Positions 6,327 to 44,738 of a stretch of DNA of 44,738 bases are shown in pieces (position 1 is the first letter of the stretch; the number at the start of each line of letters is the position of its first letter). A program made the translations under genes and the position numbers. The stretch covers positions 1 to 44,738 of IMG/VR virus record IMGVR_UViG_3300014838_000033; one strand, written 5' to 3'. The notes beneath the pieces are model-generated. The model ran no database searches. It saw nothing but the letters and a program-made list of their open reading frames with translations, and was not told the DNA's origin. The DNA comes from a virus.

Positions 6327-6906
6327 GGACATCATCTGGAGTAAATTGAACCCCATGCCGGAAAGCGTGACCGACCGCTGCACCAAGGCGCATGAGTATC
6401 TGTTCATGCTCACGAAGTCGGCGCGGTATTACTGGGATGCGAAGGCGATAGCAGAGGATGCCGCAGTTGAGCCACACATGCCGGGAAATATCGCTTTAGC
6501 TGGAGGGAAGAATGATTCCGGGCATATGGAAGCACGAACCTGGGGTAATGGCACCCGCAACAAGCGCAGCGTGTGGGAGATTGCCACGCAGCCATACTCC
6601 GAGGCGCATTTTGCCACGTTTCCCGAAGCTCTAGTCGAGCCGTGCATTCTGGCAGGCAGCAAAGTAGGCGATACCGTGCTGGACCCATTCTGCGGATCAG
6701 GCACAACCGGAGCCGTGGCCCTGCGCTATCACCGTGACTTTGTGGGGATCGAACTGAATCCTGAGTACGCGCGACTAGCTGAGAAGCGAATCGGCAAAGA
6801 AGCTCCGATGTTCAACGATGTATCTGTGATCGCCCCAGACTCGGTTTCCCAAAGATCACCGGCCCGGACTTCGCCTGATCCTTCCGCTCCAGACGCCAGC
6901 GAATAA
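6301..6906 (+). CDS. DNA methyltransferase, C-terminal fragment (frameshifted)
   Basis: This frame continues the methyltransferase after the break. Homology-like sequence starts at EDIIWSKLNPMPESVTDRC (from 6325), continues with EYLFMLTKSARYYWDA, and ends with the S-adenosylmethionine-binding motif LDPFCGSGTTGAVA and the GIELNPEYA strand. These are the standard C-terminal parts of beta-class enzymes. An independent start would have to be TTG 6301, GTG 6310 or ATG 6355, none with a good ribosome-binding site. The last about 25 residues overlap the end of the terminase gene on the other strand and are probably not conserved. Read together with the upstream fragment it would encode one enzyme of about 325 residues. 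Confidence 0.75.
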   Translation: MRSVQTAGEDIIWSKLNPMPESVTDRCTKAHEYLFMLTKSARYYWDAKAIAEDAAVEPHMPGNIALAGGKNDSGHMEARTWGNGTRNKRSVWEIATQPYSEAHFATFPEALVEPCILAGSKVGDTVLDPFCGSGTTGAVALRYHRDFVGIELNPEYARLAEKRIGKEAPMFNDVSVIAPDSVSQRSPARTSPDPSAPDASE

Positions 6907-8353
6907 CCGAGAGCGACCGCTCATCGACCCCGTTCTGCTCTAACTTCTTGAGCATCTCCTCGCGCGCCACCTCGTCCGGCTTCCGGTCGCCGGTGAGGAA
7001 GGTATTCGTGTACAAACAAACATCAAGTAAGTCGTCAAGGTCGTCGCCGGGCACCTTGAGGACAGCTCCCGGCCTGTCCGGGTCGTGCTTCCGCGACGCG
7101 AGCGATTCGAAGCTCTTCGGGCAGGTATCTGTGAGGATGAATTCGCGGCGCGATAGTCTCGACGCCAGAGACTGCGCGTTGCCGATCGAGTCTTTCGCCG
7201 CGCTCATCAGGCTCAAGCCCATCGGCTCGAACACTCCCTGGATGATTTCTCGGTTCGACTTGCCCGTGCCGGTGTGGGCGTCCATCGCGGGGTCGCAGTA
7301 GCCGGCGATGATCTTCGTCCGCTTGCCCTTAATCTCCCGCTCCAGGAACTTCCGAGCAATGTGCTGCGCGTAGTCGTAGGAGTACATCTTCCGCTGCACG
7401 TCCTCGCCCACCATAACCATCCGGTTGGACTCGTCCATAAAGTAGAGCCCCGTCGCCGCCGCGCTCGAACTCATGCCGTAATCCATCACGATGAAGTGCG
7501 GCATCCACCATTCCTCGCCGCATGCGTGGTACGGGAGCACGTAGCTCTCATTGAGGAAGTCGAAGAAGGCGCCCTCGGTAGCGCACCAGCAGCCGAGCAG
7601 CAACTTCTTCTGAATGGCAGCCGTCTGCGACATCAGGGCGACAACCTTTTCCTCGCCGTAGGCCGGATTGTCGGATGCCTTTGCCGGGATGAAGCAGGTC
7701 GTCCGCATCACCGGCGTCTCGTCCTTCTTCCAGCGCGCACCCTGGTAGACCGCTCCAGGGATAACCGACTTCGCGGGATAGCACACCGGGCACGAATCGT
7801 TGAGAAAGACTTTTTTCAGCCACGGAGTTGAAGGGTTCGCGGTGAGACGCACACGATCGCGCAGGCCGTACTCGGGGGGCGTAGACACCCACGGCAGGAG
7901 GGAGCGGAACCTCTCTTCGGTCTGGAACTGGGCTTCGTCAATCCCGAGCCACGAAACAGGCTTGCCGGTGTAGAGCTCGACGTCGGCATCCTTGGCCATG
8001 TACCCGACGCGCATCTGCGCTCCAGATGGAAAGCGCCACAACTTTCCGCCCTCAGCCTTTCTCCCACCGAGCGGCAGATAGATGCGCTCCATCTCGTCCA
8101 TGATGTTCGTCATCTCGGTATAGGACTTGCGCAACAGGATGCCGCGAAACCGAGGATTGTCGTATTCCTGCGCAGAGTCACCGACCAGACCATTGCTTTT
8201 CCCGCCTCCGCTGGCCCCCCCATAAAGCACAATTTGCGCGCGGCACTCGATCAACGTCATTTGGGGGGAGCTGTTCGGAAACCAGCCGTTTGTTTCCTTG
8301 ATGTTGGCTGGAAGCGGGATCATTCCGCGGTCTTCGAGGAGAGTAAGAGCCAT
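6812..8353 (-). CDS. terL: Terminase large subunit
   Basis: A 513-residue DNA-packaging motor. The ATPase domain has Walker A GGASGGGKS (45-53, K52) and Walker B SWLGIDEAQ (D139, catalytic E140), with TANPS at 171-175 as the coupling motif. The RNase H-like nuclease domain begins with FIVMDYG (D291), with a second acidic residue in GYCDPAMD (D354) and a third cluster DDLDDLLD near residue 450. It cuts concatemeric DNA and pumps it through the portal. It is the last gene of the late strand and overlaps the 3' end of the methyltransferase on the opposite strand by 95 bp. The terminase pair at the far end of the late operon recalls T7-type order. Confidence 0.95.
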   Translation of the reverse strand: MALTLLEDRGMIPLPANIKETNGWFPNSSPQMTLIECRAQIVLYGGASGGGKSNGLVGDSAQEYDNPRFRGILLRKSYTEMTNIMDEMERIYLPLGGRKAEGGKLWRFPSGAQMRVGYMAKDADVELYTGKPVSWLGIDEAQFQTEERFRSLLPWVSTPPEYGLRDRVRLTANPSTPWLKKVFLNDSCPVCYPAKSVIPGAVYQGARWKKDETPVMRTTCFIPAKASDNPAYGEEKVVALMSQTAAIQKKLLLGCWCATEGAFFDFLNESYVLPYHACGEEWWMPHFIVMDYGMSSSAAATGLYFMDESNRMVMVGEDVQRKMYSYDYAQHIARKFLEREIKGKRTKIIAGYCDPAMDAHTGTGKSNREIIQGVFEPMGLSLMSAAKDSIGNAQSLASRLSRREFILTDTCPKSFESLASRKHDPDRPGAVLKVPGDDLDDLLDVCLYTNTFLTGDRKPDEVAREEMLKKLEQNGVDERSLSVIRWRLERKDQAKSGPVIFGKPSLGRSQIHR

Positions 8354-20488: not shown

Positions 20489-21554
20489 CGTTAACCACCA
20501 ACCTTCCCCCGTTCCCACCTATATTTTGTCCGCCTCCGGTTGATCCTGCCGCAATTCCGCCACTCACTCCGACCGGGTAAGTCCCCGGCGTTCCACCGGT
20601 GCCAGGCGTTCCATTCGCAATCGAGATGAGAACGCCCGCCGTAATCGTCTGCGCGCCCGGTGCGCCGCCGGTGCCGACCTGAACTGGCGGAGTCAACGTC
20701 ACTGGATCGCTTATCGCGTTCCCTCCGCTCACGACGTTCCATGAAGTGACAACCCCGGCCCCGCTGATCGTCACTGTGACCACCGGCAGCACGCGCGCGC
20801 CACTGCCTACCGTGCTCACCGCTCCAATCGGAGTGCTGCCGTCCTGGAGCACTTCTGGAAGCGTGCTCCGCACCTGATAATCGGTGCCGTCGTAGCCCAC
20901 AACCTGCTCGGACGCGAAAGGCACATTGATGATCGTCGCCGAGGGCAGGATCGTCTCAGCCGCCCCTTTTACCGAGGGGAATTGAGTGTTGAGGCCGGCC
21001 TTCCCGTAGATCCGGACAATGGCGCTCGTGTCTGTCGAATTCTGCGCCGAGTCCACATTGCCGTAATTGGTCTGGTTGAGGACGGTCGCGGCTTCTGACG
21101 CCGCCGACGACTGGAGGCCTGCCGAGACGGTCCCCGGCTGCACCTGGTAGGAATTCCAATTCGACTGGTCATAGCTCGAGCGCAGCCGCCAGAATGCTGT
21201 CACGCCGGGCGCCGCAGCCGTCTGCTTTGTCGCCGTCGAGACCGGAAGTACGGTAACACCACTACCGCCAACGAAACTCGCCTGCGACGAATAACTTAGC
21301 TCATGGTAGAGCGTCTTGTTGATCGACTGCGAGGGGTTCGTGATGGCGATATTGAACGCCCCGTTTGCTCCGGAAACGGTAAACGTGGCCAACGGTGGAG
21401 GCGCGCTCGACGGCTGCTGTGGAGAATTGGTCGGCTCCACAAAGTTGATTCCAAGCGTGTTATTTACAACTTCGTGCTGCGAGTACATGCCGAGCAGGAT
21501 GGTGCGCAGCGTGAAGTCCTTGATCGAGTTGATCTGCGCTTTGCTGAGTGCCAT
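20472..21554 (-). CDS. Probable tail/surface protein, beta-rich
   Basis: A 360-residue protein. Residues 1-40 are helical (ALSKAQINSIKDFTLRTILLGMYSQHE); residues about 55-145 read like a fibronectin-type or similar beta sandwich (ATFTVSGANGAFNIAITNP, FWRLRSSYDQSNWNSY); then comes a long Ser/Thr/Val/Gly-rich beta section, ending in a Gly-rich collagen-poor tail (GTPGTGGTPGTYP, GGGQNIGGNGG). No catalytic motif. It directly follows the 1037-residue tail gene (stop and start abut at 21554/21555), so it is probably a tail or head-surface component. Exact role unknown. Confidence 0.75.
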   Translation of the reverse strand: MALSKAQINSIKDFTLRTILLGMYSQHEVVNNTLGINFVEPTNSPQQPSSAPPPLATFTVSGANGAFNIAITNPSQSINKTLYHELSYSSQASFVGGSGVTVLPVSTATKQTAAAPGVTAFWRLRSSYDQSNWNSYQVQPGTVSAGLQSSAASEAATVLNQTNYGNVDSAQNSTDTSAIVRIYGKAGLNTQFPSVKGAAETILPSATIINVPFASEQVVGYDGTDYQVRSTLPEVLQDGSTPIGAVSTVGSGARVLPVVTVTISGAGVVTSWNVVSGGNAISDPVTLTPPVQVGTGGAPGAQTITAGVLISIANGTPGTGGTPGTYPVGVSGGIAAGSTGGGQNIGGNGGRLVVNDGTTG

Positions 21555-24500: not shown

Positions 24501-24668
24501 CTGGATGGCTGTCTGGATCCCGTAACGGGTCTCGACTTCGGTGAGGTTGAACCGGCAATTCTGTGCGAGGGCCGCGCAGCCCATCGGCAGATTGGTGGGA
24601 TCATCCTCATCGACTAAGCCCAACCAACGCGAGAACTCGATCTTCGAGGCTTCGCCATAATTGCTCAT
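21555..24668 (-). CDS. Large tail protein (tail hub/tubular type)
   Basis: A 1037-residue beta-rich protein, the largest structural protein of the connector-tail block. The start (MSNYGEASKIEFSRWLGLVD, then LPMGCAALAQNCRFN and VETRYGIQ) resembles podovirus tail proteins in which an early segment collects virion partners. Two similar beta-sandwich domains follow at about 258-350 and 395-495, both with GGTxxxxxDVYVxxTxxNxxGExLP. The C-terminal 450 residues have WD- or propeller-like repeats (GVLYSLRERSGF, GRFMIFVHSSGVWKYEQ). This layout resembles T7 gp12-type nozzle proteins; I infer a tail nozzle or hub. No enzymatic motif. The ATG lies inside the 3' end of the HNH homing gene. Confidence 0.8.
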   Translation of the reverse strand: MSNYGEASKIEFSRWLGLVDEDDPTNLPMGCAALAQNCRFNLTEVETRYGIQTAIQGKNLSAITGLLGCAYTPESALESYFQTILLYDYAGSLQIENPTGTGRTVAIAPGLVAVPTKSHMIGTQAYNHAWMSFSDLLTPTAYPAAYDLKSGNLYPYGMKPVGFGWYGYGQILQGECCTPSQLQSGVTVAVGNGHLYICTVAGATGPVQPVWPLTEGGMVVEVLSAAQIAAGLTPATWKEQTPVLANALPMPASPVLSQVAAGGTWDDTSDVYIVITFLNSIGESLPSIPVFLNPAAPTTTVNVQVPTLASLAGWIRGLPAQYIPTAANVYVAAVAHGSPAPQLTMYQRFNSTPVALGTLYGVTAVGVGAVPPSNNSARITGGQLPTPDVEPVITRSAGGGTFAAGRDVYVLQTYTNALGETLPGPANSIVDTLLDDAVVVNVAFPEGYAVTGVNLYECDVPTGTTFDGNDFPPFGDFALVGSFGNGAIATITDSATGGPPPVMNTTGTAGNVPQDTLQGGPNGTQGYRWGIIAFMDEFETVSGIRQAAAFSCIVDQNGWELSVFNMPTGPNYIQNVILGLTVADGVSAGPYAYIDQATVSDFIPISATIFPNGTSSATVNFTDEYLLGSDAGGLDITDRLRVIQPQQCVDIYYSATVDRIFQTGVPGFYSGHWVSLAADPESYYGDTSVIEVGTDDGERAWCVREYQGVLYSLRERSGFELSPSTADPSTWSVTRRWVKVGPCGPRAVDVCGRFMIFVHSSGVWKYEQTAPELVSKELPRWWNTINWTAAQSIWVAIDEQEHEVRMGFPVGNSTIPNVILTLNYEEGWNNPLLFSRYSGKEITIEQCRKFSVDNIQGYLGQRVYRTITGEPIPNEGPVSINEQTAQQYISQFLIASAGPDGTVQAVSPGIYNDNGAGIDCQYESVAAQQMMTLCKLQGLNMNARGNGALNVSFIAGARRVTDWQDGTPQPNWLVKLKPIQLELNPSKGISRNTPSKLNERWRVRYDNGAVPDAWFSMKYSCVFISPMFQGRLAAETP

Positions 24669-25227
24669 CTGGGAAGTTCAACCTCGCAAACTCGCCAAAG
24701 CAATGAGACGCCGCTATATCGTAGGCGCGCGCCGCGGGTTCTACCTGACGGTAGGTTCCGAGGTAGTAGCGCACCCGGTTGACAGTGATTGCGGACTCGT
24801 ACGATTCTGTGCATCGCGCCTTTCGGTAGACACCTTTGTACTTTCGTCCCGACCGAGGACGACAGTTTGCCCCATTTGTGGACCGATTCGAGGGTCGCAG
24901 ATTCTTGCGCCTATTATCCCAACCACACAGGTTGATGTGATCGGCACGCGGCCCGCAAATCTCCGCGTGCATCACGACGGTGCTTGGCCCAACGCCCGAA
25001 CGATTGGGACGCATAGCGTAATAGGTTTTGCCGCAGTGGTGTGGCCGAGCCTGCCACTTATGTTCATTCAGCCAATCAAAATCGGCCGCGTCAACGATCG
25101 TGAAAAGGCCACGGGTCAACGGGATGATCCGGCAATATATCCCATCGATTTTGAAAGGCTGCGCGTCGGCCATCTCCAATCTGAAAACATCGGGAATGAG
25201 CCGTGCTAGAGTTGAGACTTGGGGCAT
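24607..25227 (-). CDS. HNH homing endonuclease with AP2-type DNA-binding domain
   Basis: A 206-residue protein. Its HNH-like region has VVMHAEI (H near residue 91), ADHINLCGWDNRRKNLR with the D-H pair and N, and TNGANCR. The C-terminal part, YKGVYRKARCTESYESAITVNRVRYYLGTY and the following AARAYDIAA, is an AP2/ERF-like DNA-binding domain. HNH-AP2 proteins are mobile homing enzymes common in phages. A near-perfect ribosome-binding site (AGGAGG) lies 8 bases before the ATG, so it has its own strong translation signal. It sits between two structural genes and overlaps the start of the tail gene by 62 bp. Its last 20 residues run into the tail gene. Confidence 0.92.
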   Translation of the reverse strand: MPQVSTLARLIPDVFRLEMADAQPFKIDGIYCRIIPLTRGLFTIVDAADFDWLNEHKWQARPHHCGKTYYAMRPNRSGVGPSTVVMHAEICGPRADHINLCGWDNRRKNLRPSNRSTNGANCRPRSGRKYKGVYRKARCTESYESAITVNRVRYYLGTYRQVEPAARAYDIAASHCFGEFARLNFPDEQLWRSLEDRVLALVGLSR

Positions 25228-28094: not shown

Positions 28095-28549
28095 CAGCGC
28101 CCAAACCTACTCAGTGGGGTGAAATAGCGCCGCCATGACCACCATGGATGCAACGCGCGCCGGATCGACCGCTTGTATCCTTTGGTGCGATAGCGATGCT
28201 CGTCATACCCGCGCATCATGGCGCTTGCAAACCATGCTGTAAGCGCGCCCTCGTCAAGCCCGATGTGATAGGCGAGATTGTGCTTCACAAATTCCCGAGC
28301 CCACACTTGCGCATCGAAGGACGCGAAGAGTTCTGTGTCCGGGATCATGCTTTCCTTGATTTCCCGTTCGATCCGCTCCCTCGCGGTCTCAATATAAGTC
28401 GGTGACGCCATCTTTTCTCCATTCAGAAGTTGGGTTGTGCCGTACGGCAAGATCGGGGCCATCTTCGGAGTGAAGGCGACCACGATCTTTGCCGTATGCC
28501 AAGGATTAAACTGGAAAGACTTAGAGTGAAATAAGTCCTTCCATTTCAT
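28094..28549 (-). CDS. Unknown late protein downstream of capsid
   Basis: A 151-residue protein if translation begins at ATG 28549, which overlaps the capsid stop as TAATG. A second ATG at 28411 has a good ribosome-binding site (GGAGA, 4 bases away) and would give 105 residues. I favour the long form because it leaves no gap and reads as protein (MKWKDLFHSKSFQFNPWHTA). The rest is helical: a charged stretch (YIETARERIEREIKES), an aromatic core (VWAREFVKHNLAYHIGLDEGALTAWF) and a basic tail with WWSWRRYF. Family unknown. Confidence 0.7.
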   Translation of the reverse strand: MKWKDLFHSKSFQFNPWHTAKIVVAFTPKMAPILPYGTTQLLNGEKMASPTYIETARERIEREIKESMIPDTELFASFDAQVWAREFVKHNLAYHIGLDEGALTAWFASAMMRGYDEHRYRTKGYKRSIRRALHPWWSWRRYFTPLSRFGR

Positions 28550-29853
28550 TAATTTGAAAAACTTGACTGGATGGACAACCCGTAGATCACGCCCGAGGTC
28601 CAGTTGTTGCGGCTCGCATAATTCACCGCGTCGTACAGCCACGCATCCTTGTAGCTGGACGTGTTGCTGCCGCTGGGGCGCTGGAACCAGATGCCGTCGA
28701 TCTGCCCCGGAACAAACTGCGGGGCGTCATTGAACCGGCACCGGATCATCGAACCGCGGTCCATGAAATACAGCTTGTCGATCGCGGCTACGGTGTCGAG
28801 CAACCACTCGACGCCAGCAATCTTTTCCATGGTGAACGTGTCGGGAACGCCATCAAACTTCGGCGCCTTGCCGGTCGGCATGGTGATTTGCTGGATGGCG
28901 AACCCGAGCTGATTCCACGACGCGCGCTGGGCGTTGTGGCCGTACCAAAAGTTCGCGGGCCGGTCGCGGTTGTAAACCGTGTTGCCCATGGTCTGCTGGA
29001 CGCGGGTCAGGAAAGTCTCGACGATACCGAGGGTGAGCAGGGAGTTGGCATTGTAGGCCGGACTCTGGACGTAAGAGAGCGACCGATCCATGCCCAGGTA
29101 CTCGCCGGTCGTATTGGGACTGACGATGTACTGAATGCCGTTGAAGAACAGCGGCGAGCCGGCGGCGACGTTGTTCACCATCACGTAGTCGCCAGCGACC
29201 ACGCCGCCGGGGACGTTATCCACTGTGATCTGGTTGCCGGTGCCGATACCGTTCTTCGGCGCGTCTACCACAACCGCGGAGCCGCGCAGGGTGTAGTTTC
29301 CATCACCCGACATGAACTGCACGGTGTCCTGGATGTCGATGAGGCGCGAGCCGAAGGGGCTTGTGGCCAGGGAAATGGGGTTAGCGCCGCCGCCGGCATA
29401 GGTTGCCGAAACGGTCGCAATCTGGCCGGTGTTAAAACCCTGGAGCGATTGGTTGCGCTTTTTGGGCATCTTCGTGTGGGCGTCGGCGACCAGCTTGTCA
29501 ACGGGGTTGACTGCGATAACAGTCTTGCCGGACGAGCCGATGCGCTTCTGGAGGTCGGTAGCGGTGATGGCGAGCAGGATCTCGACGGGGGTCATGATGC
29601 CCTCGTTGTAGGCGCCACCGGTGCCGGTCGGGTAGTTGCCGCCATCGGTCGAGCCGGCGCCGAAGCTGCCACCGTACTCGTACTGCAGCATGACGCGGAA
29701 CTCTTGGAGGCTGGTGATGGTCTGCGGGCCCATGGTCGAGAACCGGCGGTCAAGCTCCGATTCCATGTTCTCGATGACTTCCTTGGGCGGCGTATAGGTC
29801 TGCAGCATGATTACGGAATCAGCGGCTGCCGTAGTGAAATTGGGGGCTGCCAT
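28549..29853 (-). CDS. Major capsid protein
   Basis: A 434-residue protein with the size, composition and position of a major capsid protein. An N-terminal arm (PNFTTAAADSVIMLQTYTPP, ELDRRFSTMGPQTITSLQEF) is followed by a glycine-rich loop region at about 60-85 and a large alpha/beta region. The segment from about 200 to 300 (VVVDAPKNGIGTGNQITV, GDYVMVNNVAAGSP) looks like an inserted beta domain. It lies directly after the scaffold gene and before connector genes. A strong AAGGAG precedes the ATG at about 12 bases. No protease gene is adjacent, so maturation might be protease-free. The call rests on context and fold impression, without sequence search. Confidence 0.85.
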   Translation of the reverse strand: MAAPNFTTAAADSVIMLQTYTPPKEVIENMESELDRRFSTMGPQTITSLQEFRVMLQYEYGGSFGAGSTDGGNYPTGTGGAYNEGIMTPVEILLAITATDLQKRIGSSGKTVIAVNPVDKLVADAHTKMPKKRNQSLQGFNTGQIATVSATYAGGGANPISLATSPFGSRLIDIQDTVQFMSGDGNYTLRGSAVVVDAPKNGIGTGNQITVDNVPGGVVAGDYVMVNNVAAGSPLFFNGIQYIVSPNTTGEYLGMDRSLSYVQSPAYNANSLLTLGIVETFLTRVQQTMGNTVYNRDRPANFWYGHNAQRASWNQLGFAIQQITMPTGKAPKFDGVPDTFTMEKIAGVEWLLDTVAAIDKLYFMDRGSMIRCRFNDAPQFVPGQIDGIWFQRPSGSNTSSYKDAWLYDAVNYASRNNWTSGVIYGLSIQSSFSN

Positions 29854-32955: not shown

Positions 32956-35529
32956 TTATTTTCCCATTACGGTTTCTACCGTGTCGATCAACTTATCCGC
33001 CGCGGCAACCGGGGGCTGCGAGAGCTTCGGTGTCGTAATTGGGACCTGTGCTGCCCTGTGCAGCATGTCGGCCGCGTCGGCTGCCTGTCCGAGCAATTTT
33101 GCTTCCATCGCCTGAATTGCAGGGTTCGGCGTCGGCGGAGGCGGTTGCCCCTCTTTGGCTGCCTGCATCTTGAGTTTATTCATGTAGCCCTGGACCTGCG
33201 ACTGGTACTCGAGAGCGAGCTTCTTGTACGCAATCACATTCTGCCAGCCGAGCGGGTTTTGCCCCTTTACGTCGTCGTTTTCGCGGCAGAATTGCTCGAC
33301 CGTCGGGAGCAGGATCGTGTAATCCTCGACCCACTTGTCGGGTGCGATCGATGGCATAAATATAGGCGCTCCATCGTCCGGATCGACAACCTGCTTCCCG
33401 TCCGGTCCAATCTTTTTGACTGGCGGAGTCTGGAGCAGCCGGCGAATGTCCTGGAGGGTCTTCGAACGCTGCGCGGATCCCGGAGAAATCGATCCAGGCA
33501 AACCCCAATAATCATTGAGCAGTTGCTGATTTGAAACCTCATCGAGCCACGCGAGCGCCGCCGGATTCTGTTTCTCGGCCATCTCCATAAGATTTTCGCA
33601 CCACTGGCGCTTTTGCTCTGGCGACATCGGCAGGCCTTCGTCGGTCGACGCCTTTACCCTCACGCGGCCCTGCATCTCGTCGAGGTGCACGTAATTCTGC
33701 CGGAAGGGAGAGCCGTTCTCCTGGATCACGCGCCAGAGCGAGCCTGTGTACTTCATGTTCGCCTGCAAACACTCGATGGCGTTTTGGCCGGCCGTCGCAT
33801 GCTCTTCCTTCATGGCGTCGTAGATGTCGCCGAGCGGGCCCATTGCCTGATCTAGCATTTGCTTTTGGCCCTTGCCTGTCTCGACGCCCGGCGTCGTGCC
33901 GGTTCCGGAGACCTGCGGAGGAATGCCGGAGATGATCTGGCAATAGTTCCAGAGCCGGTCGAGGTAATTGACCAGGCCGGGGTCCATCTCGAAAGAGAAG
34001 TGATAAACGGCGTTCGAAAGCGGCTGCTGGACGCCTTCGCCGACAGACGGCGTTGGATTGAGCACGGCGCCGGTGAGGGGCTTTCCGCTCATCTCGCGCA
34101 TGTCGATGCGCCGCGGATCGACCAGGGTAATGCCGGTAGAGCACCGCTCCATATAGTCGTCGAGAATGTTCGAAATATTGTTGAACCGCTCATTGAACGG
34201 CACAACATTGTCGGCGACGCTGGGCGGGTAGAGGCCGTATCCCTTGTGAAGTTTGCAGACCGACCACTCCTTTGCGAGCACTGCGTTCTCGGTGTTCAGC
34301 ACCTTCTGGCCGTGCATGCTGACCTTCATCCCGTAGGGATAAAGCCCCTTGAGCTTTGCCAGCAGCGGATCGTCTTTCTTGAGTTTGTAATAACAGTTAG
34401 GCTGGACCCATATCAGCGAGAAAGTTCCGCGCGAGGTGAAGATGTCCGCGGTAACGGAGAACGACGAGGAGAAAACCATCGTCCGGACTAGTCGATCGTA
34501 GGTCGCATTCTCATCAGTAGCGCTCTCGGCGCCATCTTCAATCTCGTCCGCCTGGTCCGGGAACGTGGCGCGTACCTCGGACGATTCAACTTCCCACTCA
34601 AGCGCGAGAAGCGGAACGTCTTCGATGTACTCCTTGGTTGGGTCGGTGTCCACCTGGAGTGGGCAGAATACACTCCACTTGGGAAGGCCATTTGCCTTTT
34701 TCTTGAGGCCTACTTGTCCGATGACCGATGCAGTCTCGCCCGGCTGGAAGTCCTGGGGATTGAGTTGCGCGCCGCAGTTCGCGCAGTTCATGCTGCCGGA
34801 CTGCGCGACCTCGGCCTCGGTCGAATCCGCGCCGCAATCCGTGCAGTGAAAGTGGTCTTCCGAGATGGGCGCTTGAACCTCGCCAAACACCGGCTCGTTC
34901 TTGTAGCCGACCCATGTCCCGTCGATCACAAAGCGGGTCCACTTGAAATAAACGCCGTAAAGATAGAGGTATTGTGCTTCGAGGCCGAGCATGGCCTTGG
35001 GTTTATTGTTCTCCTCGATGATGCTGACGGCTTCCTGCGCGGCCTTGGCCGTCGTCATATCGGCAAGGTTATCGGCATTCTCGGGGCGCACCACGATAGG
35101 AGGCACCTGACGCGCCACCGCGGCAGTGAAATTGCGCCGGCAGGTCTGGGTGATGTTGTTTATGTACTTCTCTAAATAGCTGTAATCGGTTTCCTGGTTG
35201 TTCTGCCGGTACCAGGCAACGGCATCGAAGTAGGTGCGCGAGACTGGATCCCAGCCGAGAATTTGCTTGCCCTTGTCATACTCTGTGTTCTTGAGCCAAG
35301 TGGGCATGCGCATGATGCGATCAGTCGCCCACTGGTTGCGAATGGGCGCGATGATTTCACCGACTACGCGCTGCTGCTCCTCCAGGGTGAGCCCCGAATT
35401 GGCTTCTTGGACTTGCTTATCTCCACGAAGCGGATTTTGAGGGTTTCGCTCGGCATTAACGGCGTTATGGGCTTCGGGCTGGGGCGCGCCGACCGCGCCT
35501 GGAATTGGGACTGTCTGGTTAGTCGCCAT
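32956..35529 (-). CDS. Portal protein with zinc-ribbon insertion
   Basis: An 857-residue protein with the length and features of podovirus portals. Early helices (EEQQRVVGEIIAPIRNQWATD), an aromatic clip-like region (LEAQYLYLYGVYFKWTRF), then a zinc ribbon with C229-x2-C232 and C249-x2-C252 (HCTDCGAD, NCANCGAQ). Further on come the wing and stem segments (FNERFNNISNILDDYMERC) and a long crown-like helical C-terminus (LALEYQSQVQGYMNKLKMQAAKEG). Portals form the dodecameric ring at the DNA-entry vertex and anchor terminase and tail. The zinc ribbon is not part of standard portals I know. The start overlaps the 116-residue gene by 11 bp. Confidence 0.88.
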   Translation of the reverse strand: MATNQTVPIPGAVGAPQPEAHNAVNAERNPQNPLRGDKQVQEANSGLTLEEQQRVVGEIIAPIRNQWATDRIMRMPTWLKNTEYDKGKQILGWDPVSRTYFDAVAWYRQNNQETDYSYLEKYINNITQTCRRNFTAAVARQVPPIVVRPENADNLADMTTAKAAQEAVSIIEENNKPKAMLGLEAQYLYLYGVYFKWTRFVIDGTWVGYKNEPVFGEVQAPISEDHFHCTDCGADSTEAEVAQSGSMNCANCGAQLNPQDFQPGETASVIGQVGLKKKANGLPKWSVFCPLQVDTDPTKEYIEDVPLLALEWEVESSEVRATFPDQADEIEDGAESATDENATYDRLVRTMVFSSSFSVTADIFTSRGTFSLIWVQPNCYYKLKKDDPLLAKLKGLYPYGMKVSMHGQKVLNTENAVLAKEWSVCKLHKGYGLYPPSVADNVVPFNERFNNISNILDDYMERCSTGITLVDPRRIDMREMSGKPLTGAVLNPTPSVGEGVQQPLSNAVYHFSFEMDPGLVNYLDRLWNYCQIISGIPPQVSGTGTTPGVETGKGQKQMLDQAMGPLGDIYDAMKEEHATAGQNAIECLQANMKYTGSLWRVIQENGSPFRQNYVHLDEMQGRVRVKASTDEGLPMSPEQKRQWCENLMEMAEKQNPAALAWLDEVSNQQLLNDYWGLPGSISPGSAQRSKTLQDIRRLLQTPPVKKIGPDGKQVVDPDDGAPIFMPSIAPDKWVEDYTILLPTVEQFCRENDDVKGQNPLGWQNVIAYKKLALEYQSQVQGYMNKLKMQAAKEGQPPPPTPNPAIQAMEAKLLGQAADAADMLHRAAQVPITTPKLSQPPVAAADKLIDTVETVMGK

Positions 35530-37933: not shown

Positions 37934-38335
37934 TCACTTGGCCAGCGTAGACCACTGGCTCAGTACGGTTTGAATCGTGGAGATGGCTGAGGCCAAATTG
38001 GCTGGCTCGACAGCGTCTGGGTTGGCTTGGATAGCCGCCTGCCATTGCTTGAACTCAGGCTGCGCGATGGCGTAGGCTTGCTGCATTTTCTGCACGGCAG
38101 CATGGATCGCCGGGTTGGACACGCCAGGGCATTTGGTGAGCGTCGGCTGTGCCGCGCAGTCGGCCTGGTCTTTCTCGTACCCCGTGATTGTGCTGTAGGC
38201 GGAGTCGATGGCTTGTCCAGCAATCGCGACTTGCGCGTTCGGCGCCCATGCTGGCAGCGGGGCAGTAACAGTCTTGCAGCCGACGATGCACAGCGTAACC
38301 AGCAGCGCGGCGGTGAGTGACAGGATTCGTTTCAT
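37934..38335 (-). CDS. Lipoprotein (possible outer-membrane spanin)
   Basis: A 133-residue protein with a lipoprotein signal: a basic start MKRILSLTAALLVTLCIVGC, where C20 follows the lipobox IVG. The mature part is largely helical (APNAQVAIAGQAIDSAY, AVQKMQQAYAIAQPEFKQW). It fits an o-spanin-like or other envelope protein; real o-spanins are usually Pro-rich and shorter, so this is not certain. The ATG at 38335 overlaps the stop of the 64-residue gene (ATGA), which fixes the start. A diderm host is consistent with this signal. Confidence 0.8.
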   Translation of the reverse strand: MKRILSLTAALLVTLCIVGCKTVTAPLPAWAPNAQVAIAGQAIDSAYSTITGYEKDQADCAAQPTLTKCPGVSNPAIHAAVQKMQQAYAIAQPEFKQWQAAIQANPDAVEPANLASAISTIQTVLSQWSTLAK

Positions 38336-39018: not shown

Positions 39019-39214
39019 GCTCTCCATCCTGATTTCGATTCTCGTGATGTGCCTGATCTTCGGCCTGATCTGGTGGATCATCAGCCTTATCCCGCTGCCC
39101 CCACCTTTCTCCCGTGTCGCTCAGGTGGTCATCGCAGTGATCTTTTGCATCTGGTTGATCTACCTGCTCGTTCCGTTTGCCACGTTTGGGCATCCGGGAC
39201 CGCTGCTGCGCTAG
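39017..39214 (+). CDS. Two-helix membrane protein, holin-like (inverted gene)
   Basis: A 65-residue protein with two clear transmembrane segments: LSILISILVMCLIFGLIWWI and, after the turn LIPLPPPFSR, VAQVVIAVIFCIWLIYLL. This two-helix layout with a proline turn resembles small holin-like phage membrane proteins. It is the only plus-strand gene inside the late arm. GAGGT lies six bases before its ATG. Start and stop share CATG and CTAG with neighbouring minus-strand genes. Being antisense to late transcription, it would need its own promoter; none is obvious. Confidence 0.78.
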   Translation: MLSILISILVMCLIFGLIWWIISLIPLPPPFSRVAQVVIAVIFCIWLIYLLVPFATFGHPGPLLR

Positions 39215-39519
39215 TGCTTGAATAGCTCCACAATAGCAATGAGCACGCCGATCAGAGCGATGATGGTCGTCCGCAGGTTGTCTTTTCTTGCCTGCTGGGC
39301 GCTGTGGGCTTCCAGTGTGGCCTTGACGACTTCTTGCTGGCTCAACACGAGATCCTTTCGTTCATCATCCCGCGCCTTATAATCGGTAATGAACTCTCGC
39401 ACATCCACTTGAAAATTGCGGAAGTTGGACACCCCGGCCACGAGTGATTCATGCTCGCTTGTCATCTTCGCCCTCCACCGAATCCAATCTCCGTCGTCAT
39501 GGCTTGGCATCGTGCTCAC
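39211..39519 (-). CDS. Tail-anchored membrane protein
   Basis: A 102-residue protein starting with GTG after AAGGGAGATAA. Residues 1-75 are charged helix, likely coiled coil (SEHESLVAGVSNFRNFQVDV, LVLSQQEVVKATLEAHSAQQ), and a single C-terminal hydrophobic helix (TTIIALIGVLIAIVELF) follows. It resembles hemolysin XhlA-type phage membrane proteins, which assist lysis. Position ahead of the lysis genes supports this. Stop codon overlaps with the inverted gene's stop in CTAG. Confidence 0.75.
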   Translation of the reverse strand: MSTMPSHDDGDWIRWRAKMTSEHESLVAGVSNFRNFQVDVREFITDYKARDDERKDLVLSQQEVVKATLEAHSAQQARKDNLRTTIIALIGVLIAIVELFKH

Positions 39520-39593: not shown

Positions 39594-41609
39594 TCACTGC
39601 AACTTCCCCGTGCCCTGAAATGTCCCAACGCCCTGCATCACACCCAGCGGACTTGTGCTGGTCGGATAGGTCAACTGGTGCATCGCCGTTCCGAGAGCCG
39701 ACCTCGCCGCCTCAAGCCCGCTACCTGATGTTTCAAACGTATAGGAGTTCGTGATCCAGCTATTGATCTCGGTGGTCACGAGCGCGCCCTGCCCATGATT
39801 ATTCAAGACGTTCAGGTATTCGTAGTCCTGCACTCCGTCTCGGATGTGCTTCAGGCGGAGGCTTGGAAGGATGATGGGCGTTGTAACTCCTGTTCCCATG
39901 TATCCGGGTGAACCCGGCTTAACATTGCCTGCATAGAACAGCGTGCCATCTCCCCAATTACCGAAGGCGTATATTGACACCCAAGGGTCTTTGGGCGATG
40001 TCGGATTGATGGGCGTTACTCCACAAGTGGTCGCTGGGTACGAGGTGGTTGTATCGCAAACATCCCCGGCATAGTACAACTCGCCGCTCTGTCCATGTAG
40101 ATACGTCAACCATTCAAAAGCGCGGTTGGCTGCGGGCTTGCCATCGACATCGTAATTTGAATAGGTGTATGTGCTGTCTCCAGGATACCCGTTCCCGCAA
40201 GTACCTCCGCTAGTGCAGCCTTGATACGCCCACCAGTGGCGCGGGATGCCATCCGTCGAGCCGGTCAGCCACGTTGCGTAATTCGTAAGATTTTGAAGTG
40301 GGCCACCTATCGGCTCCAGCACAACATTGTTCGAGACCATGATGTCAATCGAGTTCTGCGCGGAATAGGTTGTCGCGGTGACGAGATCGGTGGTAACGAG
40401 TTCGGGAATCCCTGGATTCAAATATCCGTGTCGTGTGGCAGCATTGGATATAAGCGTAGCGAAATCGCCGCTTGTGTGAGGCTCGTCCACTAGATAATCG
40501 AACAGCGGTAGCGTGCCCGCCGTTCCCCAACCGTTGGTAACAAAGTTGGTTTGAAAGTTGCTCCAGATGCCCGAACTTGCAACTCCTCCCGCCAGACTAA
40601 TTTCCTTAGTCGTATTTTTGGAGCCGGAAAGCACTGGGCATGTTGATCCGCCTCCAGCATGTAGGTTGCAAGTTCCATTCATGATCGGGCCGACATAAGT
40701 GGTGTAGTTAGAAAAACTGCCGGTGTTGGGAAAGACGTTTTCGATTCCTCCAGCATCGTAGCGGTTATCCTTCGCTATCAGATCAGCGTCCAGCCAGATT
40801 GCCGTGTTCGGATCGCCAGTGATACCTCCTCCCGGATAACTCCCGCACGATACCGTGGTGGTTCCGGGGTTATACATCTGAATGCAAAGCCCGTTGTATC
40901 CCCAATTCCAAAGCATCGTTTTGAGCGTCGGGGTCGCGGGCATATATCCTGCTGACGGCCACTGCCATACGCCGATAACCACGGGCATGGTTGCAAGCGT
41001 CGTGCTGCCGCTCTTGACCGTGACTGAACCGAGGTAATAGCCGGAAGGCGCGGTTGGCGGGATCAGCACGTCAACCCAGGCGCTCTGATTATTTCCTGAC
41101 GATACGTTGAACGGCCATGCGTTTGTGGTCTGGCCCCAGTATGGGTCAACTGCTGGAATCAGAATGTCCGGGTAATAGCCGGTCGTGCCGTAGAAAGTGT
41201 TGGCCGTGGATGATACATAGCCAGTCACGTTCATGTACGCTTCACGATAGACAGTAATCGGAAAGGGCAGCGAAGAAGTTTGATTTGAGATTGTGTTGCT
41301 GCCGCCCGGTCCTGTCGATTTTACAAAGCTGCTGGTTGTCACGCTGAGATTCGCTGTGCCACCGCCGGAGTCATGCCAGTGAACCTGAAAGTCAGCAAAC
41401 TCATTTTGCGTGGCATAAATGAGTAAGCCGCACGGATACGAACCCGGCGCGCCGCCATCCTGCCGCACCTTCTGCATCGTGTCTGTAAGCCATGCGCTTG
41501 ATGGTGTGCACGAAAGCGACGGAGCATAGGCAGAGTTTAACGGATCACTCTGCCCGAATGCGGGCAACGATAGAAGCGCGAAGATAATAATGTTGAGTAG
41601 TTTTCTCAT
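39594..41609 (-). CDS. Secreted-type protein, DUF4091-like, possible glycoside hydrolase
   Basis: A 671-residue protein with a textbook Sec signal peptide (MRKLLNIIIFALLSLPAFGQ, cleavage probably after AFG). The mature part has an N-terminal beta-sandwich region, then a TIM-barrel-like core with LFDYLVDEP (V374-D375-E376-P377), HWWAYQGC, and near the end LRLKHIRDGVQDYEYL, the signature of DUF4091 proteins related to glycoside hydrolases. D375 or E376 could be catalytic. A signal peptide on a phage late protein is unusual; it could be exported to degrade host glycans or be a captured host gene. Adjacent genes have signal peptides too. Confidence 0.85.
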   Translation of the reverse strand: MRKLLNIIIFALLSLPAFGQSDPLNSAYAPSLSCTPSSAWLTDTMQKVRQDGGAPGSYPCGLLIYATQNEFADFQVHWHDSGGGTANLSVTTSSFVKSTGPGGSNTISNQTSSLPFPITVYREAYMNVTGYVSSTANTFYGTTGYYPDILIPAVDPYWGQTTNAWPFNVSSGNNQSAWVDVLIPPTAPSGYYLGSVTVKSGSTTLATMPVVIGVWQWPSAGYMPATPTLKTMLWNWGYNGLCIQMYNPGTTTVSCGSYPGGGITGDPNTAIWLDADLIAKDNRYDAGGIENVFPNTGSFSNYTTYVGPIMNGTCNLHAGGGSTCPVLSGSKNTTKEISLAGGVASSGIWSNFQTNFVTNGWGTAGTLPLFDYLVDEPHTSGDFATLISNAATRHGYLNPGIPELVTTDLVTATTYSAQNSIDIMVSNNVVLEPIGGPLQNLTNYATWLTGSTDGIPRHWWAYQGCTSGGTCGNGYPGDSTYTYSNYDVDGKPAANRAFEWLTYLHGQSGELYYAGDVCDTTTSYPATTCGVTPINPTSPKDPWVSIYAFGNWGDGTLFYAGNVKPGSPGYMGTGVTTPIILPSLRLKHIRDGVQDYEYLNVLNNHGQGALVTTEINSWITNSYTFETSGSGLEAARSALGTAMHQLTYPTSTSPLGVMQGVGTFQGTGKLQ

Positions 41610-41610
41610 G

Positions 41611-42612
41611 TTATGGCCCCGGCTTTATTGAAGCTACAACGATTACATGGTTTGTAGTTGGATCACCCGTCTCCGTCCAGCCATCATTTGTTGCTGCTGG
41701 AGTTACAATGGGGCCATGATAGGACATCCCAAATGCAGATACTCCTTGAATCAAGTGATAGCTTCCAACTTGAGTTTGTGGCGAGCTAGGCGCGGCAGAA
41801 CCATAGTCCAAGCCTATCCCGGCTACATCAATAATCCATGCGTTTGCGTTCGCAGTCGTAATACTTACTGTTGGTGTCGCGGTTGAACTAAATGTATTTG
41901 TTGCCGAGCCAGAGTTGTCGAGCGCAGAGCCACTTGCACCAGTGAAAGACACCGCTTTGCAGTAGAAGGATGTTGTCAAGCCTGTCGAACCACTCGGGGT
42001 CACAATAATGCTATGTGTTCCCGTAGCTGGAGAAAATAAGTGGTATAGCCACACTTTAGTAAAATAGCCATTTTCACTTGAGTTTATGGCGGTCATCGAC
42101 GTGCCATTGTAAGTGACTGAGTTGATGGCTATTACATTATTGCCCTCATTGATTCCGCACCCTACCCACAAATCAGGGCCGGGGCTGGCTGCTGTAATCG
42201 TGTGGCTCCACGTACATGGCGATCCTGTCGTAGCCGTCGAGCAGTCACCGGAGTCGCTGTTGGCATCGTGGGCTATAGTAAGTGGACCGCTGATCGTGTA
42301 CGTCGCGCTTCCCACTGAGCTATCTCTATGATGAGCGCAGCCTCTCGCTTGTGCGTAGAGTGTGACGCCCGTGGTCACGGAGTACGTGGTCTGAGCCGTG
42401 ACCGGGGGATTGGATGTGTCGAAATAGATCGTGCATCCGTCGCTCGTGCTGGTCGATGCTGTGACGGTCGTGGGGTTCGCTACCGCACCCGCTGCCGGAG
42501 AGAATGTTGGCGTTGCGGCGCGCTGATTGGTGCCGCCCATGATAATCGAAAGAATCTGGCCTTGCGCTGGAACCGCAAGCAGGCACGCGAGGAGTACGAA
42601 TAGACGCTTCAT
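41611..42612 (-). CDS. Secreted-type beta-rich surface protein
   Basis: A 333-residue protein with a Sec signal peptide (MKRLFVLLACLLAVPAQGQ, cut after AQG). Residues about 33-108 match a chitobiase/hexosaminidase C-terminal-like or Fn3-associated domain (TPTFSPAAGAV, TIYFDTSNPP, VTLYAQARG). The rest is Ser/Thr-rich beta sandwich with WVGCGINEG and AWIIDVAGIGLDYG. Such domains bind carbohydrates or act as spacers in secreted enzymes. The gene starts at an ATG overlapping the previous stop (TGATG). It may accompany the 671-residue protein. No enzyme motif seen. Confidence 0.8.
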   Translation of the reverse strand: MKRLFVLLACLLAVPAQGQILSIIMGGTNQRAATPTFSPAAGAVANPTTVTASTSTSDGCTIYFDTSNPPVTAQTTYSVTTGVTLYAQARGCAHHRDSSVGSATYTISGPLTIAHDANSDSGDCSTATTGSPCTWSHTITAASPGPDLWVGCGINEGNNVIAINSVTYNGTSMTAINSSENGYFTKVWLYHLFSPATGTHSIIVTPSGSTGLTTSFYCKAVSFTGASGSALDNSGSATNTFSSTATPTVSITTANANAWIIDVAGIGLDYGSAAPSSPQTQVGSYHLIQGVSAFGMSYHGPIVTPAATNDGWTETGDPTTNHVIVVASIKPGP

Positions 42613-44060
42613 CAGTTCACCGTCACAGTTCCCACGTAGTTCGTGGTCAGGTAATGCGTTGAATCGCGCCCCGCAATGCAGACAAGGTTTCCTGTTGCTG
42701 CCGACAGGACTAGCGTACCAGTGCCCGCTGTTCCGTAAGCTGTGCGAGCAGAGTTTTCATATCTGGCGCTTGACCCAAGAGCGGACAACGTGATCGCCGT
42801 GCTCACATTGTCATCGTTGAGGATGCAGAATTGGTATCCCGCTGCCGGTACAGGAACAGACACCGTGCAGGTCCCTGTGCAGACGGCGATTCCAGACGGG
42901 GCCGCAAGGGTGATGGAGGCGCTAGGTGTCGGAACCGCAACAGCGGGGACGGCAGTAGCTGGAATATCACCCGCGGCAATCGCCGCAGAGTTGTACACAC
43001 CCGGTACAGCCGTCGCGTGCAGGACGTGCGTCGTGGTCGTATCCGAGTTTGCGCCCACCATATACTCGCTGGTGTTTGGAAACGTCAGCGTCACCGCTCC
43101 AGACGAGGCAGGGTAGGTCGATGTCGTCAGATTCGTCGATGTCCCAAACACCTCTTGGTTGCTCGTCTGCGCATGGTAAAGCGGCTGATTGACCGTGATC
43201 TTGTTCGTCGCAAAAGTGAACTTCGGAGTTCCAGTGTCCGCGCTACCAAGAGAACCACCGGCCGCTACTGAGAGATTTCCAGAGACGTCCAGCGTAGAGG
43301 TTGCAGAAGGTGTCTGCAAAGCCTGAGAGCCGCCGCCCGTAACCAGAGCGGTAGAAGTTAGGTTTCCAGAGCTAACAACTGTGACTGTGCCGCTGCCTCC
43401 GGGGGCGACCCACGTACAAACAGTGGGATTCGCAGCCGTACAGGAAAGGCTAGTATTGCCAGCCGATGGTTGAGCAACCGGAAGTTGGATAGTGTAGGAA
43501 GTAATCGCTCCTGTTCCGGGTTCGAGGGTGATTAGACCGCTCGTGGCATTCGCCAGATACAAGGGCGCGAGTGTTCCCGCTGTGCTCACAATGCTTCCGA
43601 GGGGGATAGTCGTCGCCGCTCCAACCTGAGAAGCACCATTTGCATAAACGTATCCAGTCAGACCGCTTAGAATCGGTGCTGTCGAGAATGTTTGAATTGC
43701 ACTCCAAGTGTTCGCGTGGGCCAGATTCAGCGATGCTACCACCGCGCCGGTAGTAGGCGAGATGGTCAACGTGCCGTCACTATTGGCAACAGATGAGACA
43801 GCGCCTCCACCAAAGCAACTGGTGGTACATGGCGCCCAGGTTCCAGGATTTCCCGTGCCATCGGTCGAGTAGAAGATGGCGACGTACAGGGGGACGAGAT
43901 TGGGGACCGCCGTTCCGCCGCTGCCCGTCAGTGGCTCCCACGGGCCTGCCAGGGTTCCGGTCGTACTTACGAACGCGGCGACCTTCGTTGGCTGGACCTG
44001 GGCCGATGCGCAAACCGCCGCGGCGACACACAAGAGCAGAATCAACCATTTATTTCTCAT
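42612..44060 (-). CDS. Secreted-type fibre-like protein
   Basis: A 482-residue protein with a Sec signal peptide (MRNKWLILLLCVAAAVCASAQ, cut after ASA), chosen at the ATG 44060 after GAGGAGCAAT; an upstream in-frame start would spoil it. The middle is Ser/Thr/Gly/Val-rich beta repeat typical of phage tail fibres (GGGAVSSVANSDGTLTISP, VTVVSSGNLTSTALVTGGGS). The C-terminal 75 residues share a pattern with the neighbouring truncated gene: C-x-x-x-C, QFCILNDDNVSTAITLSALG. It is probably a tail-fibre or surface adhesion protein, oddly with an export signal. Confidence 0.82.
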   Translation of the reverse strand: MRNKWLILLLCVAAAVCASAQVQPTKVAAFVSTTGTLAGPWEPLTGSGGTAVPNLVPLYVAIFYSTDGTGNPGTWAPCTTSCFGGGAVSSVANSDGTLTISPTTGAVVASLNLAHANTWSAIQTFSTAPILSGLTGYVYANGASQVGAATTIPLGSIVSTAGTLAPLYLANATSGLITLEPGTGAITSYTIQLPVAQPSAGNTSLSCTAANPTVCTWVAPGGSGTVTVVSSGNLTSTALVTGGGSQALQTPSATSTLDVSGNLSVAAGGSLGSADTGTPKFTFATNKITVNQPLYHAQTSNQEVFGTSTNLTTSTYPASSGAVTLTFPNTSEYMVGANSDTTTTHVLHATAVPGVYNSAAIAAGDIPATAVPAVAVPTPSASITLAAPSGIAVCTGTCTVSVPVPAAGYQFCILNDDNVSTAITLSALGSSARYENSARTAYGTAGTGTLVLSAATGNLVCIAGRDSTHYLTTNYVGTVTVN

Positions 44061-44068
44061 ATTGCTCC

Positions 44069-44738
44069 TCAATCCGCCCAAGGAACGCTAGAGCTCCAAT
44101 TTGCATACTGCGTGGTGCTGTATCCAATCCAGCAGCTTTCGTCATACGCGCTGCCGGGAGACACCACGGCGTGGTTGGCTGTCCCCCAAGTCGTGTGGTC
44201 GGTCAGTTCATAGGAATTTCCAGATCCGAGCGCCGCCAGCGTAACCACTGCATCCGTATCGGGTCCGTTGCGAACGCAGAGCTGCACGTTCAGCGCAGGA
44301 GGAAGCGGTGTGATCGTGCAGTTCGCCGTGCAGATGATATAGGTGTTTTGCGCTACGACCGTGATTGCCCCACTGCTGATGATGGTTGCGACGGGAGACG
44401 CGCACACGCCGTTTGTCGCATCGCAGATTCGCGCCGCAGTTCCGGCCGCCTCGCTCAACATTTCCTGTCCTAATGAGTTTGGCCCCAAAACCGCTGTCGT
44501 GCTCGAACCCGGAACAAATGGAAGAGTGTAGGTCAAAGACAGTTCCGACGGCAGCGTGGGATTATTTACGTCAATCGGCTCGCCTGTAACCGCGTGCCCC
44601 GCTGTCGAGTTTGGCGGCACAAAGCCGTGGTACTGATCTCGCCGCGCTTCTTCGATCTGGTCTGCGCTTAAGTTGCAGGTTCCTGCCGCAATGCAAGCAG
44701 GATTGTTCGGGCCGGCGATGAACGTCCAGCCCGGCTCG
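44069..44738 (-). CDS. Fibre-like protein, N-terminus beyond window
   Basis: The frame stays open to the right edge, so the start is missing; 223 residues are visible. The beginning reads EPGWTFIAGPNNP and NLSADQIEEARRDQYHG. Beta-rich middle, then a C-terminal domain like that of the 482-residue protein (IICTANCTITPLPP, QLCVRNGPDTDAVVTLAALG, then SCWIGYSTTQYANW). A GTG at 44620 is a possible internal start but the homology-like frame continues upstream. It is probably a tail-fibre or receptor-binding protein. No signal peptide can be judged. Confidence 0.75.
   Translation of the reverse strand, partial: EPGWTFIAGPNNPACIAAGTCNLSADQIEEARRDQYHGFVPPNSTAGHAVTGEPIDVNNPTLPSELSLTYTLPFVPGSSTTAVLGPNSLGQEMLSEAAGTAARICDATNGVCASPVATIISSGAITVVAQNTYIICTANCTITPLPPALNVQLCVRNGPDTDAVVTLAALGSGNSYELTDHTTWGTANHAVVSPGSAYDESCWIGYSTTQYANWSSSVPWAD

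What the first reader, a model, noticed from the sequence alone, without database searches (positions are those of the whole stretch)
39594..44060. Three adjacent phage late genes with Sec signal peptides
The 482-, 333- and 671-residue proteins each begin with n-region, hydrophobic core and A-x-A/G|Q cleavage site (ASA|Q, AQG|Q, AFG|Q). Tail fibres normally assemble in the cytoplasm and carry no export signal. A row of three suggests a dedicated exported module: secreted glycan-binding or degrading proteins acting outside the infected cell, or captured host secreted genes.
Basis: partly seen in the sequence, partly recalled or inferred. Interest (0 to 1): 0.75.

Follow-up and report, generated by a model that had tools for sequence, protein, structure and literature searches.

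The report
Soil phages with exported tail-fibre proteins
A little-known group of viruses of bacteria gives its tail-fibre and sugar-cutting proteins the 'export me' tags normally found on secreted bacterial proteins, and their paired cysteines suggest that they really fold outside the cell interior, unlike any tail fibre I know of.

Summary
Three adjacent late genes (482, 333 and 671 aa) start with textbook Sec signal peptides. It is not a one-off. Nearly complete relatives of this phage (terminase 68-73%, 857-aa connector protein 74-80% identical) carry rows of about 4-7 such proteins at the same place, upstream of the lysis genes and connector gene. In ordinary viral contigs only 1 of 134 tail-spike/collar proteins has a signal; among contigs sharing a fibre motif with the window it is at least 10 of 17.

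Independent evidence that the signals work: mature signal-bearing proteins hold twice the cysteine, and an even number in 42 of 50 (94 of 198 without signal; p=1.6e-6). One fibre N-terminal domain exists with and without a signal; a loop cysteine pair is present in 13/13 with and 0/14 without.

The exported proteins are fibre/spike types: tail collar, pectate-lyase spike, K1-lyase chaperone, GH54 and, in the window, a GH123-clan N-acetylgalactosaminidase relative. In relatives, three neighbours share one domain directly after the signal, like a docking domain. Most likely they are exported, disulphide-bonded and join virions at lysis (virion step inferred). Rival: free secreted glycan-degrading enzymes. 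Host, cleavage and virion location are untested.

The parts
42612..44060 (-). 482-aa fibre-like pre-protein. Mature part has 8 Cys in close pairs (78/82, 207/215, 394/398, 412/461), a fibre motif (residues ~86-130) and a C-terminal domain shared with other exported phage fibres
   Evidence: residues ~21-85 are 77% identical to the same place in the relative G007, then diverge
44001..44060 (-). Sec signal peptide of the 482-aa protein, MRNKWLILLLCVAAAVCASA|Q
   Evidence: GGAG ribosome-binding site just upstream
41611..42612 (-). 333-aa pre-protein of unknown fold, 6 Cys in the mature part; start overlaps the stop of the 482-aa gene
   Evidence: N-terminus 94% identical in another phage that also keeps the signal
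42559..42612 (-). Sec signal peptide of the 333-aa protein, MKRLFVLLACLLAVPAQG|Q (alternative site after VPA)
39594..41609 (-). 671-aa pre-protein, GH123-clan beta-N-acetylgalactosaminidase relative with DE motif (YLVDEPH) and 10 Cys
   Evidence: profile match to PDB 8k2f E=1.2e-28; weak Pfam GH123_N_2; DE pair kept in L002
41553..41609 (-). Sec signal peptide of the 671-aa protein, MRKLLNIIIFALLSLPAFG|Q
   Evidence: the homologue in L002 has a divergent signal, MKRLILYLALLIVTSAMTTHA
44069..44737 (-). C-terminal fragment (222 aa) of a further fibre-like protein, cut by the contig end; its last ~90 aa are homologous to the C-terminus of the 482-aa protein
   Evidence: blastp 33% over 91 aa, E 3e-8
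39211..39519 (-). 102-aa protein with C-terminal membrane segment, start of the small-gene/lysis block
   Evidence: weak PHROG match only
37934..38335 (-). 133-aa small lipoprotein-like pre-protein (MKRILSLTAALLVTLCIVGC|K)
   Evidence: the same signal-bearing protein lies upstream of the connector gene in L234
36762..37214 (-). endolysin, peptidase M15 type, no signal peptide
   Evidence: Pfam PF08291 E=4e-9; PHROG endolysin E=2e-20
32956..35529 (-). 857-aa head-tail connector (portal by position and size; no PHROG hit), the anchor gene used to find relatives
28549..29853 (-). putative major capsid protein
   Evidence: PHROG 'major head protein' E=0.01, position
6812..8353 (-). terminase large subunit
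   Evidence: about 30% identity to terminases of HMO-2011-like and Pelagibacter podoviruses; 68-73% in whole relatives

Best explanation
The three genes are the visible part of a fibre/spike module whose products are made as Sec pre-proteins. (1) The signal sends each protein across the inner membrane and signal peptidase I cuts it before the Q (inferred from sequence; strongly supported). (2) In the oxidising periplasm the proteins form disulphides and fold as fibre- or spike-like glycan-binding and glycan-cutting proteins; the 671-aa one is a GH123-clan N-acetylgalactosaminidase relative (disulphides inferred from cysteine statistics; enzyme family from a profile match). (3) Heads and tails are built in the cytoplasm without them. 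When holin and endolysin break the envelope, the two pools meet and the exported fibres dock on the released particles through a shared N-terminal domain, so the virion gains its receptor-binding parts outside the cytoplasm (inferred, the least certain step). I give about 0.9 to steps 1-2 and about 0.5 to step 3.
For: Signals: at least 10/17 motif-bearing fibre proteins of window relatives, against 1/134 ordinary spikes/collar proteins. Seven of eight connector relatives with enough upstream sequence carry signal-bearing fibre-like genes; in the eighth (L251) the candidate ORF is cut at its 5' end. Nearly complete relatives hold rows of them. Signal regions diverge faster than what follows, 30-59% against 67-75% identity, yet stay signals. 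Oxidative folding: Cys 1.75% against 0.80%; even Cys count 42/50 against 94/198, p=1.6e-6. A fibre N-domain with and without signal: loop Cys pair 13/13 against 0/14, with the signal directly before the domain. Fibre/spike nature: Collar, pectate-lyase spike, PHROG tail fibre, GH54, K1-lyase_C directly on signal-bearing proteins. Docking: families F2, F3 and F4, neighbours in the same phages, share ~150 aa right after the signal; the 482-aa N-terminus is 77% conserved with G007 over 66 aa, then diverges. L006 carries a domain of cyanophage PSS2 gp074, deposited as 'virion structural protein', which has no signal there. GH123.
Against: No wet-lab or proteomic data; cleavage and virion location are not shown. 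SignalP was not available and my scorer is a rule set. The window's 671- and 333-aa proteins show no recognised docking domain and would fit free secreted enzymes as well. The phages also hold unsigned virion proteins (window 20472-21554, 21555-24668) that could include the true receptor-binding part. The shared N-domain could be a glycan-binding or trimer-start domain rather than a dock; its fold matched nothing significantly. No host is known.
Confidence: 0.52

Rival explanations
1. The proteins are exported and act free: soluble glycan-binding and glycan-cutting enzymes, built from recycled fibre/spike parts, that leave the infected cell or are freed at lysis, strip surface glycans and debris that would trap progeny, or mask receptors on infected cells. 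They never join the virion.
For: Same export and cysteine evidence. The 671-aa GH123-clan relative, GH54 and GH39-like domains are enzymes. The window's 333- and 671-aa proteins show no docking domain.
Against: Tail collar, K1-lyase_C, PHROG tail-fibre and virion-protein domains on signal-bearing proteins; a shared N-terminal domain in neighbours; no other fibre set was recognised in nearly complete relatives. Free release alone would not need fibre trimer chaperones.
Confidence: 0.36
2. Captured host secreted genes (morons or auxiliary metabolic genes) that help the host use glycans, with no role in the virion or the lytic cycle.
For: Signal style and GH domains resemble bacterial secreted enzymes; a distant relative of the 671-aa protein lies on a Nostoc plasmid.
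Against: Several per phage in every informative relative at a fixed late position; fibre/spike domains; members mosaic with each other's C-termini, as fibres are.
Confidence: 0.07
3. The N-terminal hydrophobic segments are not cleaved signals but membrane or virion anchors of proteins that stay in the cytoplasm.
For: Cleavage is not shown; some phage proteins use uncleaved signal-anchor segments (SAR endolysins, PMC6116005).
Against: Small-residue -3/-1 sites followed by Q in most members; paired cysteines that follow the signal state need an oxidising compartment.
Confidence: 0.05

Closest known systems
Tail fibres and tailspike depolymerases of tailed phages (collar fibres, pectate-lyase spikes, K1 capsule lyase)
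   Same: Domains, low charge, length, place in the late region, variable distal parts on conserved N-domains
   Different: Ordinary members carry no signal peptide (1/134) and fewer cysteines; these have Sec signals and paired cysteines
Bdellovibrio MAT fibres (mosaic adhesive trimers, PMC10769870)
   Same: Phage-tail-fibre-like chimeras with a signal peptide, a conserved domain right after it and exchangeable tips
   Different: Encoded by a predatory bacterium and used on its own surface and vesicles; here encoded in phage genomes, several in a row. Homology not tested
Sec-exported phage endolysins (fOg44 Lys44; SAR endolysins; PMC6116005)
   Same: Tailed phage uses the host Sec system for a late protein
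   Different: Those are lysis enzymes; here fibre/spike and glycosidase proteins. The window's own M15 endolysin has no signal
GH123-clan beta-N-acetylgalactosaminidases (PDB 8k2f; PMC11087588)
   Same: N-terminal domain, C-terminal segment and DE motif in the 671-aa protein
   Different: Phage-encoded, in a fibre module; activity and fold not shown
Virus-encoded glycoside hydrolases described as auxiliary metabolic genes of soil viruses (from memory; no paper on signal-bearing cases found)
   Same: Glycosidase domains in environmental phages
   Different: Here they sit inside a signal-bearing fibre block, so a virion or lysis-time role is more likely than host metabolism

Membership tests
Sec / signal peptidase I substrates | basic n-region, hydrophobic core, small residues at -3 and -1 | tested here: met
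   with shuffle and genome controls
Sec / signal peptidase I substrates | folding in an oxidising compartment (paired cysteines) | tested here: met
   window mature parts hold 8, 6 and 10 Cys
Sec / signal peptidase I substrates | actual translocation and cleavage | not testable with these tools
   needs N-terminal sequencing or reporter fusions
Phage tail fibre / tailspike proteins | recognised fibre/spike domains | tested here: met
   met for relatives; in the window the 482-aa protein shares motif and ends with them but has no direct Pfam/PHROG hit
Phage tail fibre / tailspike proteins | no export signal (cytoplasmic assembly) | tested here: not met
   signals present; ordinary members 1/134
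Phage tail fibre / tailspike proteins | presence on the virion | not testable with these tools
   no virion proteome; no isolate relative in INPHARED
GH123 clan | sequence homology over N-terminal domain and C-terminal segment | tested here: met
   8k2f E=1.2e-28, two stretches; Pfam GH123_N_2 below cut-off
GH123 clan | DE catalytic pair | tested here: met
   YLVDEPH in window, YLCDEPF in L002; role of DE from PMC11087588; this stretch lies outside the aligned stretches
GH123 clan | catalytic barrel fold | tested here: inconclusive
   AlphaFold2 model failed, pLDDT 30
Bdellovibrio-type MAT fibres | signal peptide followed by the conserved ~130-aa beta-rich domain, S74 or other tip | not tested
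   signal present; the MAT domain was not compared
Sec-exported endolysins | peptidoglycan-hydrolase domain behind the signal | tested here: not met
   no such domain in the three proteins; the endolysin gene is separate and unsigned

The most novel reading that the evidence does not exclude
A group of tailed phages splits virion assembly over two compartments: DNA-filled heads and tails in the cytoplasm, and receptor-binding fibres and spikes exported by Sec, disulphide-bonded in the periplasm and added to the particle only when the cell lyses. That would be a new assembly route for tailed phages.
Probability: 0.42. Interest if true: 0.92.

Novelty: new variant of a known kind. Interest (0 to 1): 0.77.

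Why it matters
Textbook tailed phages build fibres in the cytoplasm, where structural disulphides do not normally form. If these phages use the periplasm as a second workshop, tailed-phage assembly has a route nobody has described, and Sec, Dsb and signal peptidase become phage host factors. Even in the modest reading (free secreted enzymes), it shows that a group of environmental phages exports a whole battery of glycan-active, fibre-derived proteins, and that some viral 'auxiliary' glycosidases may really be part of the infection machinery. It gives simple tests: semi-tryptic peptides starting at the predicted Q, and disulphides in virions.

Tried and rejected
Chance or artefact of N-terminal reading: rejected by shuffles and by ordinary viral contigs. 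Lipoproteins: the three large window proteins lack a lipobox; only the small 133-aa neighbour has one. Captured host genes: see rivals. Structure of the 671-aa protein: AlphaFold2 failed (pLDDT 30). F3 from L240: N-domain modelled at pLDDT about 65-88, but Foldseek gave no match at E<=0.001 in BFVD or PDB; its C-terminus leans towards K1-lyase_C, weakly. Host: no tRNA in the window; phage and plasmid GroEL matches are below 53%; the one genome scan with the fibre motif found Patescibacteria, Ignavibacteria, Myxococcales and a few other contigs but no recognised prophage of this kind. I suspect Acidobacteriota hosts from the signal style, from memory only. Isolate relatives: none in INPHARED for the 482-aa, 671-aa or connector proteins. 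Literature: searches found no report of Sec-exported tail fibres in tailed phages; the library is open-access only.

Full report
WHAT WAS CHECKED. The window is an IMG/VR virus record of 44,738 bases.

THE PATTERN RECURS. Searches with the three proteins found other viral contigs that show the same habit: up to five large proteins in a row, each with its own signal. Of 134 such proteins with a complete start, one has a signal, and it lies in a contig already in the first set. Of the 17 proteins with the fibre motif in window relatives, 10 pass the threshold and more do so on reading by eye, where the signal lies further from the stop-to-stop ORF start.

RELATIVES OF THIS PHAGE. The 857-aa connector gene and the flanking head and tail genes are syntenic and about 52-81% identical in G007, a 53.7-kb contig. 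A scan with the connector found 18 loci. Eight have at least 8 kb upstream; seven of these carry signal-bearing fibre-like genes (for L241 they lie further upstream, in the whole contig G024), and in the eighth (L251) the candidate ORF is cut at its start. L248, with only 2.5 kb upstream, has one too. G024, G025 and G027 (57-69 kb; terminase 71-73%) hold rows of about 4-7 of them just upstream of the lysis block and the connector. Some were read by eye where the scorer missed them, for example MKRLSTLLSTMILSAGQLICA|Q in G027.

THE SIGNALS ARE USED. Two independent lines. First, in a non-redundant set (ambiguous calls set aside) the mature signal-bearing proteins have a median 1.75% Cys against 0.80%, and an even Cys number in 42 of 50 with at least 3 Cys, against 94 of 198 without signal (Fisher p=1.6e-6). 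That is what stable disulphides leave behind. The window proteins fit: 8, 6 and 10 Cys, mostly in close pairs. Second, one fibre N-terminal domain was found in two states (bait rows 2-4 of A7 were typed variants). With a signal, the signal ends at the start of the domain; without, the domain starts the protein or nearly so. All 13 signal-bearing copies from that scan have a loop cysteine pair; none of the 14 unsigned copies does. On a tree of this short domain the signal state needs three changes, so the 13-to-0 contrast rests on few independent events. Signal regions diverge faster (30-59% identity) than the sequence after them (67-75%) while remaining signals.

WHAT THE PROTEINS ARE. Behind the signals lie a Tail Collar domain (L011), a pectate-lyase tail spike (L013), PHROG tail-fibre families (L002, L003, L006), a GH54 arabinofuranosidase domain (L006, E=1e-47) and the K1-lyase C-terminal chaperone (G007 926-aa protein, whose signal was read by eye). 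The L006 protein also carries, after its signal, a domain of cyanophage PSS2 gp074, deposited as 'virion structural protein'; there it has no signal. The window's 671-aa protein matches the GH123-clan enzyme 8k2f (E=1.2e-28, N- and C-terminal stretches) and keeps a DE pair, which in that clan is catalytic (PMC11087588). The 482-aa protein shares motif, N-domain and C-domain with signal-bearing fibres of other phages. The 333-aa protein remains without a family.

WHERE THEY GO. Three neighbouring signal-bearing families in the relatives (F2, F3, F4) share about 150 aa right after the signal and differ beyond. In phages a shared N-domain on different fibres is usually a dock. A relative of that domain occurs without a signal in G018, next to its terminase-like gene. 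No other fibre set was recognised in the nearly complete relatives. I therefore think it somewhat more likely than not that these proteins end up on the virion, which would require meeting the particles at lysis. This step is inference. The main rival, free secreted enzymes, shares all the export evidence and cannot be excluded.

KNOWN OR NEW. Sec export by tailed phages is known for endolysins (PMC6116005), and exported phage-fibre-like chimeras are known in Bdellovibrio (PMC10769870). I found no report of tailed phages whose fibre/spike proteins are Sec pre-proteins; the searched library is open-access only. The parts are known and the combination looks new: a new variant of a known kind, with a possible new assembly route behind it.

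LIMITS. Heuristic signal and gene calling; controls not matched for habitat or host; no host; no isolate; no proteomics; the contig ends inside the module. That these are soil phages, and the Acidobacteriota guess, rest on context and memory, not on a test.

Noticed in passing
window 4324-5931: The phage encodes a full-length GroEL (535 aa, at most about 52% identical to anything in the plasmid and phage collections); relatives G024, G025 and G027 keep it at 66-70%.
   Followed up: partly
window 18629-19672: The 347-aa protein has a Hint/intein-like second half (CPARGTIYLACGG...VEDLEIGD...SHTYLADGFWSLGV) fused to a head part that is alone (~190-214 aa) in the relatives.
   Followed up: no
window 24607-25227: HNH/AP2-type homing-endonuclease-like gene between structural genes; several copies (34-44% identical) sit at different places in G024, G025 and G027.
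   Followed up: partly
window 5928-6906: A DNA methylase gene appears split into two overlapping frames (5928-6326, 6301-6906); G027 has one 370-aa ORF there.
   Followed up: no
window 8917-16986: A 2689-aa protein next to the terminase genes, probably an ejected internal virion protein; its middle and end vary strongly between relatives.
   Followed up: no
L003 9842-10630: A signal peptide fused almost directly to the last third of the GH123-like protein (residues ~460-662): a shortened or mosaic version.
   Followed up: partly
L005 and L006 (contig IMGVR_UViG_3300049728_000037): A signal-bearing tail-fibre protein with a GH54 arabinofuranosidase domain whose last 204 aa are 86% identical to the end of the window's 482-aa protein; an unsigned copy of a fibre N-domain lies just upstream.
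   Followed up: yes
L199 5976-6896 (contig G007): A papain-family (Peptidase_C1) protein in the lysis region of the relative where the window has an M15 endolysin.
   Followed up: no
L027, L028, L030 (Patescibacteria and similar contigs): The fibre motif also occurs in very long proteins of cellular contigs, some starting with a recombinase-like N-terminus (sequence context only).
   Followed up: no
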